From NCBI RefSeq assembly GCF_012910905.1, contig NZ_WTVN01000003.1, positions 62,001 through 126,000 of the forward strand: DNA of 64,000 nt. The letters are read 5' to 3'. Made by a program: the position numbers and the translations under genes. Below the pieces are notes generated by a model that had not been told where the DNA came from, ran no database searches, and saw only the letters and a list, made by a program, of their open reading frames with translations. Of this stretch, positions 59,094-63,900 are shown piece after piece (position 1 is the stretch's first letter; the number at the start of each line of letters is the position of its first letter). Origin of the DNA: Aromatoleum toluvorans. Its GTDB lineage: Bacteria; Pseudomonadota; Gammaproteobacteria; Burkholderiales; Rhodocyclaceae.

Positions 59094-60401
59094 ATGACGC
59101 CCGATCTCGCCGATTTCCTCGCGCCCGGTGTCGCCGCGGACGACGTGCCCGAACTGGGCGCGCTCGCCGCGGCACGTCCGCTGATCGACGCCTTCATCAC
59201 GCTGTTCCGCGGCTCCGAGGCCGAAGTGCTGCTGCGCCTGCTGGTGCTGCGCGAGATCGGCCAGGAATCGGAGGCGCCGCGCTGGTCGCCGGACGCGCTG
59301 CGCGCGCGTTTCACGTACCTGGATCCGGTGAAGCTGGAAACGGTGCTCAAGCGCCTGCGCGACAATGCCCTCCTCGCCTATGCGGACGACGGCCAGTATC
59401 ACCTGTCGGACCTCGGCCGCAACGCCGTCGCCGCGATCGCGATGCTGCTGCGCTTCTCGGCCGAGGAGGACGCCGAACTGGGGTTCCTCACCGCGCAGCT
59501 TGCCGGCCTGCAGGCGGTCGGCGGCGTTACGCCGGAAGCGCTCGGACACCTGCTGTCGAAACTCAACGACCTCACCTGGCATTTCGAAGAGGCCATCGCC
59601 TCCGGCTCCGAGTTCCGGATCCTCGGCGCGCGCCGGCGGCTTTCCGCGAACGAGCGCTGGCTCGCGCGCGGCACCGAGATCCTGAAGAGCCTGCTGGCCG
59701 ATCCGGAGGTCGACTTCGACATCGCCCGCATTGCCCAACGCATCGGCCTCGCCCAATCGAAACTTGCGCGCGTGGATGCGGGCTTTCAGCGCGCGCTGAA
59801 CAAGATCGAGGCCCAGCGCGTCACGCTGGGCGCGTCGGGGATCTCGTCCTCCGACGTCGCGGCCTGGCTGCGCGGGCTCGATGCCGGGCGCTTCGCCGCC
59901 CTGGCGGAAGGCGCGCTGTTCGTGATACCGGAGGTGCCGTTCCTGGCCGGTGGCCACGAGCTTCTCGACCGGGCGGAGAGCGTGCTTTCCGACGAAGTGC
60001 GTGCGCGCGAATCGGACACCGTGCTTCCGCCGCCGGACGCTGCCGCCGTCAATGCAGCGCCCGAGCACGACGATCTCGCGCTGCTCGAGCATTTCACCCG
60101 GCGGCTCGATGTCCTGCCGGAAGCCGTACCGCTGGAGTCGGTGGTCGGCGGCGGCGGCTTCGCGCCCGCCTCCTACCGTTTGTCTCTCCTCGCACTCCTT
60201 GCCGACGGTGAATCCGCCGGCCCGGCCGACGGCCCCGTAGGCGAATTCATGCGCCTGCCGGTGGACGTGCTGTTCGGCGATACGCTGGTACCGGTTGGCG
60301 AAGACGAGATCGCGGCGATCTCGGACGGCCGCGTCGTCCCGCGCGGTACGCAAGCCGCCCGGCCCGCACCGGCGAACGAGCGCCCCCTCATGGACGCCTG
60401 A
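59094..60401 (+). CDS. Kleisin/MksF-like subunit of SMC complex
   Basis: 435 residues, no membrane segment. Residues 41-118 look like a winged helix (SEAEVLLRLLVLREIG ... LKRLRDNALLAYADDGQYHL). The middle (125-250) is helical, possibly the segment that binds the SMC neck. The C-terminal part (325-420) may be a second winged helix. Length, order and neighbours fit MksF/MukF or JetA kleisins; similarity at sequence level is weak. ATG 59094 lies 22 bp after prfB. The stop overlaps the next start by one base (TGATG). Confidence 0.6.
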   Translation: MTPDLADFLAPGVAADDVPELGALAAARPLIDAFITLFRGSEAEVLLRLLVLREIGQESEAPRWSPDALRARFTYLDPVKLETVLKRLRDNALLAYADDGQYHLSDLGRNAVAAIAMLLRFSAEEDAELGFLTAQLAGLQAVGGVTPEALGHLLSKLNDLTWHFEEAIASGSEFRILGARRRLSANERWLARGTEILKSLLADPEVDFDIARIAQRIGLAQSKLARVDAGFQRALNKIEAQRVTLGASGISSSDVAAWLRGLDAGRFAALAEGALFVIPEVPFLAGGHELLDRAESVLSDEVRARESDTVLPPPDAAAVNAAPEHDDLALLEHFTRRLDVLPEAVPLESVVGGGGFAPASYRLSLLALLADGESAGPADGPVGEFMRLPVDVLFGDTLVPVGEDEIAAISDGRVVPRGTQAARPAPANERPLMDA

Positions 60402-61108
60402 TGGAACACGAACTCAAGACCCTCACCTCGCGCCTGCTGGCCCATCGCTGGCTGCCGCGCAGCGACCGTCTGGTGCGCCGCGCGCTGGTCGACGAAACCT
60501 TTCGCGTCGAACTGGAACACCGCCTGGCCGCGGTCGGCCTGCAATTCCAGGACAACCCCTACGCCGATCACGTCGCGGTGGCGCTCCTTCCCGACATGCT
60601 CGAGCCCGTTTTCGGCGCGCGACGCGAATACGCGGCGAGCAATGCGGGCCTCACGCGCGACGAGATCGCGCTCCTGGTGGTGATCTGGGCCATCATCATC
60701 CTGCCCAAGCGCGAACGCCAGGTGACGCGGCGCGAACTGGCCGACGATGGCCAGGGCGACATGTTCGGCGCGGACAAACCGGTCGCGCATGGCGAAGCCG
60801 TTTCGGGGGCGCTTGCGGAGGCATCGCTGATTGCCGATTTCGGGCCATTGCTGGGCGGCAGGACCAAGGTGAAGAACTTCATGCTCGGCAAGCTGGCACG
60901 CCTGGGCTTCATCGAACGGCGCAACGGCATGCTCCATGAAGGCCCGCTGCTCGATGTCGCGCTCGATTACCGCGTCGTCGCCGACCGCATCATCCACGGG
61001 ACGCTTGCCGATGTGCTGACCCGTGCCGGCCATGCGGTGCCCGAGACAAACGCCTTCGAGGAAGCCGAAGTCCTGTCCGACGCAGGCGACGAGGAGGAAG
61101 ACGCCTGA
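60401..61108 (+). CDS. MksE/KITE-like subunit of SMC complex
   Basis: 235 residues, predicted tandem winged helices: first at about 85-150 (LTRDEIALLVVIWAIIILPKRE ... VTRRELADDG), second near 150-185 (KNFMLGKLARLGFIERRNG). An acidic C-terminal tail (EEAEVLSDAGDEEEDA) follows. This matches MukE/MksE/JetB partners, which bind the kleisin. Start and stop are both in TGATG overlaps with its neighbours, so the three subunits are translationally coupled. Confidence 0.65.
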   Translation: MEHELKTLTSRLLAHRWLPRSDRLVRRALVDETFRVELEHRLAAVGLQFQDNPYADHVAVALLPDMLEPVFGARREYAASNAGLTRDEIALLVVIWAIIILPKRERQVTRRELADDGQGDMFGADKPVAHGEAVSGALAEASLIADFGPLLGGRTKVKNFMLGKLARLGFIERRNGMLHEGPLLDVALDYRVVADRIIHGTLADVLTRAGHAVPETNAFEEAEVLSDAGDEEEDA

Positions 61109-63900
61109 TGTTTCACATCAAGCAGCTCGAACTGGTCCACTGGGACTACTGGCGCCGTTTTTCATTGCCGCTCGATGCGCAGATCATCACCATCGTGGGC
61201 CCCAACGGCTCGGGCAAGACCACGCTGCTCGACGCGTTGCGCACCCTTTTCGCGCTGCGCTGCTCGGGCAAGCGCGACTTCCGCCGCTACGTGCGCCGCG
61301 CCGAGCGCAGTTTCGCGTGGATCCGTGCCGTCGTCGCCAACCAGCCGGGCTCGACCGGCCGCCGCCCCTTCTTCCCCTGCCTGCATGACGAAGTCACGCT
61401 GGCCTGCCGCATCCGCCGTGCCGGCGGCGAATGGACGCGCGACTACATCATCATCGACGGTGACCAGCCGATTGAGGTGCTGGAACAGTCGGAGGACTGG
61501 GTCGGCCTGCGCGACTATCAGAACCGGCTCGCCTGGGGCGGACTCACCCCTGCGATTGCGAAGGTTCTCGCGCTGGAGCAGGGCGACACTGACAAGCTGT
61601 GCGAATACTCGCCGCGCGCGCTGCTCGAGCTCGTGTTCGACGTGTTCGGCGACAAGGAGGTGCTCGACAATTACGAGGCCGCGCGCGAGGAACAGAAAAG
61701 CGCCGAACGCGAACTCGGCGACCTCGGGCTCGATCTCGACCGCCTGCGCGCCCAGGCCGAGACCCGGCGCCTGGAGGCGGACAACTACCTCCAGTGGAAG
61801 CAGCTCGCAGACGAAACGCACGCGCTCGAGGCCGAGATCGTGCCGCGCCTCGAGGCAGCCGAGCTTGCCGCCGAGCTCGCGTCTGAGCGCGCCGAACTCG
61901 CCCGTCAGCGCCTCGAATACGGTGCGAAGCAGTCTGAACGCCGCGCTGCCCGCCTGCGGCTGGACGAAGTGAAGGCGGAGAAGACGGCCGCCGATACCGA
62001 TCGCGTCCGGCTGCGTACCCAGCTGGAAGCCGCCGAAACCTCGCATCTCGCCGCGCATGACGCGGTGCGCGACCTGGAGAAGCTCCTCGCCGAGCGCGAT
62101 ACCCTGCGCGCCCAGCTTGCTGCCGAACACGGCGCCGATGCCGTCGCGCTGGAGGCTCGGCACGAAACGGCCGAAGCGGAACTGCGCGAGCTGAAGGTCA
62201 GGGAACGTGCGTTGGTGGCTGAATTCGAGGACAAGACCACTTCGCTGCGCAACGCAAAAAACCGATCCGGCCCGCCGTCCGACCCCGAGGTCGCGCGCTT
62301 CCGCGCCCTGCTCGACGCCGAGGGCATTCGCCACCGCGGCCTGGCCGAGATCATCGAAGTGACCGACGTGTCGTGGCAGGCGGCGCTCGAAGCCGTGCTG
62401 CGCCCCTATCGGCATGTGATCCTGCTCGAACGCGAATCCGATCGTCACGCGGCCTGGGCCTTGGGTGAGCGCGAGCGATTTCGCCATTTTGTCGTTCCCG
62501 AGCGCGAGGAAGCGCCCCCTCCGGCCGCGCGAAGTCTTGCCGAGGTGGTGCGCTTTTCCGCAGCCGTGCCGCGCTGGCTTGCCGATCTGCTCAACCGCAT
62601 CCGCCGCGTCGATAGCGTGGAAGCCGCGCGCGAACTGCCGCGGGAGATCGAATGGATCACCCGGGACGCTTATCACCGCGAACGCCGGGGCGCGCGCCAT
62701 CTGGGGCGCCCGAACGATTTCCACTTCGGCGAACTCGCCCGCCAGGCGCGCATGGAACAGCTCGAGGGCGATATCCTCGATCTCGACAGACAGCTTCAGG
62801 CACTGCGTCCGAAGCTCGCCGCCGCCACCGAACAGCTCACCGTCCTGCGTCAGCGTCTGCTCGGACTGCAGTCTGCCCAGCTTCTCGCCGCGAAGGCCGA
62901 GGCCTACGCCGAAGCCGACGCCGCGCTGCCCGCCGCACGTGCCACGCTAACCACCGCAATCGGCGAACGTGCCGAGGCCAAGGGCGCGCTCGATCAGATC
63001 GCCGGCAAACTTTCGGGAATCGACATCGAGATCGATCGCCGCAATCGCGAACTGCGTGCCATCGACGCCCGCATTACCGAACTCGACACCGGCGCGGCCC
63101 CGCGCCGCCATGCGCAGGCACTGCGCATCCAGCGCGTGCGATCCCTGCGCCGCGGCATGCCCGCCCATTGGCGCAACCCGGCGGAAATCGCGCTGCTGGC
63201 CGAGCGCTACGAGAACGCGGCGGCAGCCCGGCGCGAGCGCGACCGTCTGCGTGCGCGACTCGACGAAGGCGATTGGGTCAAGGACCCGGCGGTCATGACG
63301 CTCTCCGACCGTCTCAAGGCCGACGTCACGCAGCGCGAGCGCGACTATCTCGACCGCCAGGGCTACTGCGCGACGGCGCGCCGGCTCACCGAGGAGGCGC
63401 GCGCCGCCTACGTCGCCAAGCTGCGCGCGACGGTGCGCCAGTACGGCAAGAACCTCAAGGCGCTCGGAGAACTCGCCGGTGTGGGTGTGGACTGCCCCAC
63501 CCCCGCGCTGGGCGACGATGACCTCTCGCTCTCCCATGCGGGCCTCGAAGTGCGTTTCGACTTCGACCGCAAGGGCGCAGTCGGCCTCAACGACGGCGAA
63601 GCCTCGGGCGGCCAGCAGGTGATGAAGTCGCTGATCCTGCTGATCGCCTTGCTGATGGACGACGCCCGGCCCGGCGGATTCGTCTTCATCGACGAGCCCT
63701 TCGCCCACCTCGATGTGGCCAACATCGACCGCGTCGGCACCTTCCTGCGCGCCACTCGCGCGCAGTACCTGATCACGACGCCGGTCACCCACAACGCGAA
63801 CGTCTTCGCGCCAGCCCAGCTGACCCTGGTCACGCGCAAGAAGAAGCCGGGCGAGGAGTGGGCCCCGACCATCGGCGTTCTGGCACGCGCGACCAGCTGA
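61108..63900 (+). CDS. SMC-like ATPase (MksB-type condensin)
   Basis: 930 residues. Head N-lobe with Walker A GPNGSGKT (31-38) and EQGDTDKLCEYSPRALLEL (158-176). First coiled coil about 185-385. Hinge-like domain about 395-550 (GLAEIIEVTDVSWQAALEAV). Second coiled coil about 550-790. C-lobe with signature SGGQQ (833-837) and Walker B GGFVFIDEPFAHLD (Asp862, Glu863). This is an SMC architecture, and the kleisin/KITE-like genes upstream make a condensin of MksB or Wadjet-JetC type. Its coils are shorter than those of canonical Smc (about 1200 residues). Confidence 0.8.
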   Translation: MFHIKQLELVHWDYWRRFSLPLDAQIITIVGPNGSGKTTLLDALRTLFALRCSGKRDFRRYVRRAERSFAWIRAVVANQPGSTGRRPFFPCLHDEVTLACRIRRAGGEWTRDYIIIDGDQPIEVLEQSEDWVGLRDYQNRLAWGGLTPAIAKVLALEQGDTDKLCEYSPRALLELVFDVFGDKEVLDNYEAAREEQKSAERELGDLGLDLDRLRAQAETRRLEADNYLQWKQLADETHALEAEIVPRLEAAELAAELASERAELARQRLEYGAKQSERRAARLRLDEVKAEKTAADTDRVRLRTQLEAAETSHLAAHDAVRDLEKLLAERDTLRAQLAAEHGADAVALEARHETAEAELRELKVRERALVAEFEDKTTSLRNAKNRSGPPSDPEVARFRALLDAEGIRHRGLAEIIEVTDVSWQAALEAVLRPYRHVILLERESDRHAAWALGERERFRHFVVPEREEAPPPAARSLAEVVRFSAAVPRWLADLLNRIRRVDSVEAARELPREIEWITRDAYHRERRGARHLGRPNDFHFGELARQARMEQLEGDILDLDRQLQALRPKLAAATEQLTVLRQRLLGLQSAQLLAAKAEAYAEADAALPAARATLTTAIGERAEAKGALDQIAGKLSGIDIEIDRRNRELRAIDARITELDTGAAPRRHAQALRIQRVRSLRRGMPAHWRNPAEIALLAERYENAAAARRERDRLRARLDEGDWVKDPAVMTLSDRLKADVTQRERDYLDRQGYCATARRLTEEARAAYVAKLRATVRQYGKNLKALGELAGVGVDCPTPALGDDDLSLSHAGLEVRFDFDRKGAVGLNDGEASGGQQVMKSLILLIALLMDDARPGGFVFIDEPFAHLDVANIDRVGTFLRATRAQYLITTPVTHNANVFAPAQLTLVTRKKKPGEEWAPTIGVLARATS

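What the first reader, a model, noticed from the sequence alone, without database searches (positions are those of the whole stretch)
59094..63900. Translationally coupled SMC-kleisin-KITE set without a nuclease, next to mutS
Three genes joined by TGATG overlaps encode a 435-aa kleisin-like protein, a 235-aa tandem winged-helix protein with an acidic tail, and a 930-aa SMC ATPase with hinge, Walker A, SGGQQ and Walker B. MksBEF and Wadjet (JetABCD) systems have this order and these sizes. The following gene is mutS, not the Toprim nuclease JetD/MksG expected in plasmid-clearing Wadjet. This could be a chromosome-organising condensin, or a variant defence system using another effector. The SMC head segment EQGDTDKL resembles canonical Smc/Rad50 more than MukB, so it may be a distinct subfamily.
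Basis: partly seen in the sequence, partly recalled or inferred. Interest (0 to 1): 0.62.

Follow-up and report, generated by a model that had tools for sequence, protein, structure and literature searches.

The report
Nuclease-less SMC complex related to Wadjet
Three linked genes encode a DNA-looping motor of a little-described lineage whose relatives sometimes carry a plasmid-cutting partner; here and in most relatives examined the cutter was not found while the motor is kept, which suggests a defence machine turned to chromosome upkeep.

Summary
K (435 aa), E (235 aa) and B (930 aa) are joined by TGATG overlaps; mutS starts 3 bases after B. B is an SMC ATPase with a hinge. K resembles a kleisin (MukF/JetA) by a weak predicted fold only. 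E has one confident winged helix; its relatives give weak matches only to Wadjet subunits. The set is not MksBEF, MukBEF or Smc-ScpAB by the tests made, and B forms its own clade. The genome also has Smc and ScpA.

Lack of a nuclease is not a family trait. A JetD-like Toprim gene (D) was found in 13 of 63 genomes with E (order sample plus one) and in 19 of 80 of the bacterial family (four of these broken or partial), but not in the window's genome. D is present, broken or absent within single genera, changes state at least 15 times on a tree of B, and was exchanged at least once. Without D the core is nearly always complete and, between congeners, under purifying selection (dN/dS about 0.1).

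Best reading: a Wadjet-like loop extruder that repeatedly sheds its nuclease and persists as an accessory condensin. Function is untested. The mutS neighbour is incidental (1 of 133 loci).

The parts
59094..60398 (+). K: kleisin-like subunit (435 aa)
   Evidence: ORF; conserved with E and B; predicted fold best matched by MukF (Z 10.3) and, in row 7, Wadjet-II JetA (Z 8.2); but model pLDDT 62 and plain Foldseek not significant
59217..59405 (+). N-terminal winged-helix region of K (residues 42-104)
   Evidence: AlphaFold2 model, block pLDDT 74-86
60401..61105 (+). E: KITE-like winged-helix subunit with acidic tail (235 aa)
   Evidence: ORF; C-terminal winged helix in the model; generic winged-helix hits that include JetB and NSE1; weak PADLOC matches of relatives to JetB1/JetB3/JetA3 only, none for the window's own E
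60809..60940 (+). confident winged helix of E (residues 137-180)
61108..63897 (+). B: SMC ATPase (930 aa)
   Evidence: SMC_N E 4.2e-16; aligned to a JetC profile over 869 columns and to the Smc hinge region; own clade in a head tree
61198..61221 (+). Walker A GPNGSGKT (residues 31-38)
   Evidence: G31, N33-T38 invariant in 24 members of A6
61576..61599 (+). Q-loop EQGDTDKL (residues 157-164)
   Evidence: E157 Q158 G159 T161 D162 L164 invariant in A6
62341..62637 (+). SMC hinge (residues 412-510)
   Evidence: Pfam SMC_hinge E 0.0017, below its cut-off; residues 397-652 align to Smc columns 512-772, probability 99.7%
63604..63618 (+). ABC signature SGGQQ (residues 833-837)
   Evidence: invariant in A6
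63679..63702 (+). Walker B FVFIDEPF (residues 858-865)
   Evidence: D862 and E863 invariant in A6

Best explanation
K, E and B form an ATP-driven SMC ring (SMC dimer closed by a kleisin, with winged-helix KITE subunits) that entraps and extrudes DNA loops. It belongs to a Wadjet/Mks-like lineage, found mostly in Burkholderiales, in which the core can carry a JetD-like Toprim nuclease (D) encoded after B. With D it should work like Wadjet: it extrudes a small circular DNA completely and then cuts it. In the window's lineage D is absent, so the core most likely works as an accessory condensin for chromosome organisation or segregation beside Smc-ScpAB, as described for Pseudomonas MksBEF. Shown here: the gene set, the ATPase motifs, homology of B and D to known families, D beside B in some relatives, no D found in this genome, broken D genes in relatives, purifying selection on K, E and B without D. 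Inferred: complex formation, loop extrusion, the order of events (defence first, upkeep later) and the present function.
For: K-E-B collinear in 28 of 28 loci. B: SMC_N 4.2e-16; JetC1 models matched by 24 of 24 members; hhalign B-JetC over 869 columns, 99.8%. K: VIA-align rows 1-7 are all MukF or JetA. D: 7 of 7 proteins scanned match PADLOC JetD1 (best model of each, E 1.2e-21 to 1.0e-10). D found in 13 of 63 genomes with E, in all 13 after E on the same contig; directly after B in the nine loci of these that were read. G000: no D, no JetD_C, but Smc and ScpA. At least 15 changes of D state on a B tree of 104 genomes. Broken or partial D in G863, G839, G965 and G994 and in L009. Without D: dN/dS of K, E and B 0.09-0.14 between the window and four congeners; Walker A, Q-loop, signature and Walker B present in 77 of 77 complete B of the tree set.
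Against: K has no sequence or profile match to known kleisins, and E only the weak JetB matches. The models are weak (pLDDT 62 and 53); plain Foldseek gives nothing at E <= 0.001; the VIA rows for K have large rmsd and the tool warns that Z under about 13 may be chance for helical models. Patchy distribution (83 of 249 genomes of the family; 62 of 399 of the order) is unlike an important housekeeping condensin. No difference in selection between genomes with and without D was shown (p 0.11). D was exchanged at least once, so some states may be gains.
Confidence: 0.57

Rival explanations
1. K-E-B without D is still a defence system: it captures and compacts small circular or phage DNA without cutting it (silencing, or loss at division), or it recruits an unlinked nuclease in trans.
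For: Kinship to Wadjet parts; patchy distribution; variable genes after B in close relatives. A review describes Smc5/6 as restricting circular viral DNA by compaction (PMC10586767, passages).
Against: No second effector candidate stood out beside K-E-B (by eye). No D or JetD_C match in the genome. Nearly absent from the plasmid and viral collections. The locus lies after prfB in 22 of 25 named relatives; the other three begin at a contig end.
Confidence: 0.24
2. It is an ordinary MksBEF or Wadjet system of a known type that profile libraries miss because of sequence divergence.
For: Same order and similar sizes as MksFEB: MksB 917-943 aa and MksE 185-233 aa in L114-L117. JetC1 models match 24 of 24 B. 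E relatives match JetB models weakly.
Against: B scores 92 bits on its best JetC1 model, whereas six type I JetCs score 1023-1651 on theirs. No PF21980 match in this genome. E-MksE and E-JetB give 2.0 and 2.2%, MksE-JetB 93.4%. B is a separate clade at 100/99. Types II and III were not in the tree and are tested only through PADLOC.
Confidence: 0.15
3. It is a decaying remnant: the defence system lost its nuclease and the rest is drifting.
For: D decayed in several relatives. E is interrupted in G388 and in two pieces in G958; L014 and L199 show no B in the fetched flank and L162 only a short B frame.
Against: dN/dS near 0.1 between congeners without D; four ATPase motifs present in 77 of 77 complete B of genomes without D; frame lengths nearly constant.
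Confidence: 0.04

Closest known systems
Wadjet / JetABCD (MksBEFG), types I-III
   Same: Order kleisin-KITE-SMC-(JetD); D matches JetD1 profiles in 7 of 7; B aligns with JetC over 869 columns; K model row 7 is Wadjet-II JetA, Z 8.2
   Different: 29 K proteins match no JetA model at E <= 1 and E only weakly JetB; B is 930 aa against 1107-1180 aa for six type I JetCs and forms its own clade; D not found in this genome nor in 50 of 63 and 61 of 80 genomes with E
MksBEF of Pseudomonas (a condensin; absence of JetD in PAO1 is recalled, and its likely loss is stated in passages of PMC10586767)
   Same: SMC of similar length (917-943 aa in four MksB), F-E-B order, coexists with SMC (PMC7485682, passages)
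   Different: P-loop GPNGSGKT and SGGQQ against NNxGK and no SGG in four MksB; no PF21980 match in this genome; no E-MksE profile similarity
MukBEF of E. coli
   Same: K model best matched by MukF, Z 10.3; gene order F-E-B
   Different: No K-MukF or E-MukE profile similarity; B 930 aa against 1486 aa for MukB
Smc-ScpAB
   Same: Hinge region of B aligns with that of Smc, 99.7%; canonical ABC motifs
   Different: A separate full-length Smc (1040 bits) and ScpA are in the same genome; Smc is its own clade

Membership tests
Wadjet (JetABCD) | SMC subunit JetC | tested here: inconclusive
   JetC1 models matched by 24 of 24 members but far below true JetC1 scores; own clade, with B+JetC neither supported nor rejected (AU p 0.425)
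Wadjet (JetABCD) | Toprim nuclease JetD in the operon | tested here: not met
   No D or JetD_C in G000. Met in some relatives: 13 of 63; 19 of 80, four of them broken or partial
Wadjet (JetABCD) | Kleisin JetA | tested here: inconclusive
   No JetA profile match in 29 members of A4; predicted fold like MukF/JetA in a weak model
Wadjet (JetABCD) | KITE JetB | tested here: inconclusive
   Weak matches to JetB3 (4 of 29, best 0.023) and two JetB1 models (3 and 1 of 29, best 0.0023), none for the window's own E; winged-helix fold
Wadjet (JetABCD) | Restricts plasmids by cutting circular DNA | not testable with these tools
   Needs experiment
MksBEF | MksE family PF21980 | tested here: not met
   No match in G000; 14 of 185 class genomes match
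MksBEF | MksB head with NNxGK P-loop and no SGG signature (as seen in four MksB) | tested here: not met
   B has GPNGSGKT and SGGQQ
MksBEF | Works as accessory condensin beside Smc-ScpAB | not testable with these tools
   Smc and ScpA are present; function needs experiment
MukBEF | Long MukB in place of Smc-ScpAB | tested here: not met
   B is 930 aa; Smc is present
Smc-ScpAB | SMC meets the TIGR02168 cut-off | tested here: not met
   B 101.4 bits against 567.35; another gene scores 1040 bits
SMC-kleisin-KITE complexes in general | Kleisin subunit | tested here: inconclusive
   VIA-align rows 1-7 are MukF or JetA; plain Foldseek MukF at rank 8, E 0.06
SMC-kleisin-KITE complexes in general | SMC ATPase with head motifs and hinge | tested here: met
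   coiled-coil arms inferred from profile alignment only

The most novel reading that the evidence does not exclude
K-E-B-D is a separate lineage of Wadjet-like systems, mostly of Burkholderiales, in which the nuclease is a detachable module. It has been lost, broken, exchanged and perhaps regained many times, and each loss turns a plasmid-cutting machine into a condensin: the step proposed for the origin of MksBEF and MukBEF, caught repeatedly and recently within single genera.
Probability: 0.42. Interest if true: 0.75.

Novelty: new variant of a known kind. Interest (0 to 1): 0.56.

Why it matters
A review suggests that Pseudomonas MksBEF arose from Wadjet by loss of JetD and that MukBEF may share such a history (PMC10586767, passages). 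Here are close relatives with D intact, broken, exchanged or absent beside the same core, which makes that idea testable by genetics in closely related strains. The family is also nearly invisible to current libraries: K has no credible family match, E only weak ones, and RefSeq names for partial copies of B are 'AAA family ATPase' and 'ATP-binding protein'. Inventories of defence systems and condensins in Burkholderiales may therefore miss it.

Tried and rejected
MutS partnership: mutS follows B only in the window's genome, 1 of 133 loci searched (the named and unnamed sets overlap, and in some loci the flank after B is short or B is cut). Rejected.

A fourth gene between E and B: in 11 relatives with a gap there, the genes are trmA-like, PIN-domain-like, TonB-like and others (names by eye), not conserved. 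Rejected.

Identity with MksBEF or MukBEF by profiles: not found. A control limits this for K: MksF and JetA, both known kleisins, do not find each other either (0.7%). PDB sequence searches of K and E: no credible match (best a transcriptional regulator for K, E 0.0019). Pfam on 29 K: 25 scattered families, best E 0.0012, no kleisin. NCBIfam on 29 E: six scattered families, best 0.02. PADLOC on K: JukB in 8 of 29 (best 5.4e-5) and MkoB in 3 of 29 (best 1.9e-4), taken as chance winged-helix likeness, not followed up.

D against three type I JetD by hhalign gave 0.2%. That D alignment was made of stop-to-stop frames with extra upstream residues, so I rely on PADLOC. Against the gene after MksB in L115-L117 it gave 90.5%.

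Heptad periodicity of the arms of B was not above shuffles (152 and 103 of 500 as high). Arms are inferred from profile alignments and low Pro+Gly in arm 1 (3.9%).

Selection with and without D: not different (9 and 34 pairs, p 0.11; at dS 0.2-1, 7 and 26 pairs, p 0.40). Greedy pairing gave some distant pairs with saturated dS (dN/dS up to 1.12 without D, 0.63 with D), so I use the chosen close pairs.

Viral contigs: no relative of E; for B seven short matches at the N-terminal end. Plasmids: partial copies in two Variovorax records.

Dropped rows: the B tree holds 104 of the 143 genomes with E (63, 80); I fetched loci for 28 and 78 of them, and two without a B of 500 aa were left out (L162, L199). 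The D tree and Mantel test hold 20 D genes whose locus had a long D frame and a B over 800 aa; L090, the broken D genes and D genes on contigs not fetched are not in it. G013 (E 2.2e-4 over 57 residues) was fetched as L069 and left out.

Notebook lines that are too broad: entry 1 ('all' 25 relatives with prfB-K-E-B; it is prfB in 22 and B in 24) and entry 5 (not every D ends in EKGEQEG).
Full report
WHAT IS THERE. K, E and B lie at 59094-60398, 60401-61105 and 61108-63897, with TGATG at both junctions. prfB ends 22 bases before K and mutS begins 3 bases after the stop of B. The named relatives of E found are Azoarcus, Aromatoleum, Thauera, Pseudothauera and one unnamed metagenome bin (25 loci), so the window is from that group of Betaproteobacteria (inference). 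The same genome has a canonical Smc (1040 bits) and ScpA.

THE SET IS REAL. In 28 of 28 loci fetched around E, the window's own included, K, E and B follow in this order on one strand. E was found in 62 of 399 genomes of the order, and in 83 of 249 of the family, among them 6 of 8 of the genus; all three counts include the window's genome. Class-wide, with a narrow profile, it was found in 3 of 369: the window's genome, G367 and one weak partial match. Among the 25 named relatives, K-E was followed by B in 24; L014 showed none in its flank.

B. Pfam SMC_N E 4.2e-16; the hinge is below its cut-off, E 0.0017, but residues 397-652 align to the Smc hinge region at 99.7%. Walker A, Q-loop, signature and Walker B are invariant at their core positions in 24 members. 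PADLOC JetC1 models match 24 of 24 members; no JetC2 or JetC3 is among the 25 of 50 families shown. Parts of B also match other ATPase models, such as LmuB and mad3, in 24 of 24. In a head tree with 14 B, 14 Smc, 7 JetC, 4 MksB and 1 MukB, B is one clade (100/99). Its place among the others is unresolved: the best tree joins it to Smc with support 72/0, and B with JetC is not rejected, p 0.425; several long branches meet. Six of the seven JetC were typed by PADLOC, all type I.

K AND E. The window proteins have no family match in Pfam, NCBIfam or PADLOC beyond one chance-level Pfam row for E. The AlphaFold2 models are weak: K pLDDT 62, E 53. For K, VIA-align ranks MukF and Wadjet-II JetA in rows 1-7, best Z 10.3. 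The rmsd of these rows is large (12 to 48), unrelated helical proteins follow at Z about 8, and the tool warns that such Z can be chance for helical models. Plain Foldseek has nothing at E <= 0.001, with MukF at rank 8. For E the hits are generic winged helices that include JetB and NSE1; plain Foldseek has nothing at E <= 0.001. Scanning 29 E proteins in PADLOC gave four families, all JetB or JetA, best E 0.0023; the window's own E had none. I take kleisin and KITE as likely, not shown.

THE NUCLEASE. In 9 of 28 loci the gene after B on the same strand is a protein D of about 390-425 aa, one of the nine cut by a contig end. D was also found in three named close relatives, L011 (with an in-frame stop), L013 and L020. 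Seven of seven D proteins scanned match PADLOC JetD1; four of seven match Pfam DUF2399, three over its cut-off, and one JetD_C. E282, D331 and a C-terminal EQE are invariant in 11 sequences. Genome-wide, D is in 13 of 63 genomes with E (62 of the order sample and G367), and not in G000. In all 13 it lies after E on the same contig at about the length of B (coordinates). Within the family it is in 19 of 80 further genomes: in 14 on the contig of E within about 10 kb, in five on other contigs. Of the 19, G863 has an in-frame stop, G839 and G965 have two pieces and G994 a fragment; G839 is a 79% complete genome. L009, a metagenome assembly with 88-89% identical K, E and B, keeps only residues 45-112 and 388-415, in different frames. 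JetD_C was not found in G000. The genome search scores a limited number of candidates, so a very divergent D could be missed.

COMING AND GOING OF D. On a FastTree tree of B from 104 genomes (23 with D, 3 broken, 78 without) the D state needs at least 15 changes, or 17 if broken genes count as D. Parsimony cannot tell gain from loss; the broken copies show that losses happen. Distances of D and B correlate (Mantel r 0.66, p 0.0002; E and B r 0.95; 20 genomes). One pair with 88% identical B has D genes only 51% identical, and holding those two D together is rejected (p 0.0004; I picked the pair after seeing the identities), so D was also exchanged. D state is mixed inside five genera.

WITHOUT D THE CORE IS KEPT. 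Between the window and four congeners without D, dN/dS is 0.096-0.140 for K, 0.091-0.120 for E and 0.103-0.119 for B. Over all ten pairs without D in that call it is 0.049-0.241; over the six pairs with D, 0.076-0.336. A wider comparison was not significant. Walker A, Q-loop, signature and Walker B are present in 77 of 77 complete B of genomes without D in the tree set; my H-loop pattern misses four of them. Exceptions to an intact core exist: G388 (stop in E), G958 (E in two pieces), L014 and L199 (no B in the flank) and L162 (short B frame, D present). By eye, no other gene recurs directly after B in the 19 of 28 loci without D, and shared neighbours are otherwise housekeeping-like.

HOW IT LIKELY WORKS. 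By analogy with SMC-kleisin-KITE machines: ATP-dependent head engagement, DNA entrapment and loop extrusion. With D, complete extrusion of a small circle would trigger cutting (the Wadjet model, PMC10586767, passages). Without D, the same core could only organise or compact DNA. The review says that P. [quoted passage not shown] PMC7485682 (passages) reports overlapping roles of MksBEF and SMC there. A caution on defence: deleting a predicted type III Wadjet in Cupriavidus necator changed neither electroporation nor plasmid stability under the conditions used (PMC12645576, passages).

IN PRINT. Six searches of open-licence PMC papers (listings) showed no description of this family or of nuclease loss in these genera. 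Papers seen in passages only: PMC7485682, PMC10586767, PMC12645576, PMC10123090, PMC4255302, PMC10512200. The original MksBEF survey was not read, so earlier mention cannot be excluded.

VERDICT. A genuine SMC complex gene set of an under-described Wadjet/Mks-like lineage, without a nuclease here by loss or lineage-specific absence, most likely an accessory condensin.

Noticed in passing
L014 and L199: K and E are present but no B in the fetched downstream flank; B may be moved or lost.
   Followed up: no
L162 (G804): D lies about 1.1 kb after E with only a short B frame (220 aa) found by the script: here the SMC gene, not the nuclease, seems damaged.
   Followed up: no
L197 and L206: B is 88% identical but D only 51%, pointing to exchange of the nuclease gene.
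   Followed up: partly
L115:12599-13459, L116:5410-6273, L117:1177-2007: A 277-288-aa protein with Toprim-like motifs (by eye) follows MksB in these loci; as a group it aligns with D at 90.5%. Possibly a short MksG.
   Followed up: partly
L127:5728-11353: A set in another order, SMC-like (1259 aa) - MksE - 406-aa gene; its SMC-like protein has no PADLOC match at 1e-10.
   Followed up: no
L135:8025-12516 (Variovorax sp. WDL1 plasmid 2): A partial B, annotated 'AAA family ATPase', lies beside an IS1071-family transposase.
   Followed up: no
L071, L074, L091, L096, L097 upstream of K: Here an Obg-like gene (named by eye), not prfB, lies upstream of K; an Obg-like gene was shared by 10 of 28 loci, so the site seems fixed per lineage.
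   Followed up: partly
L016-L023 and L026, between E and B: Different unrelated genes, often trmA-like (by eye), sit between E and B in Thauera relatives, splitting the operon without removing it.
   Followed up: partly
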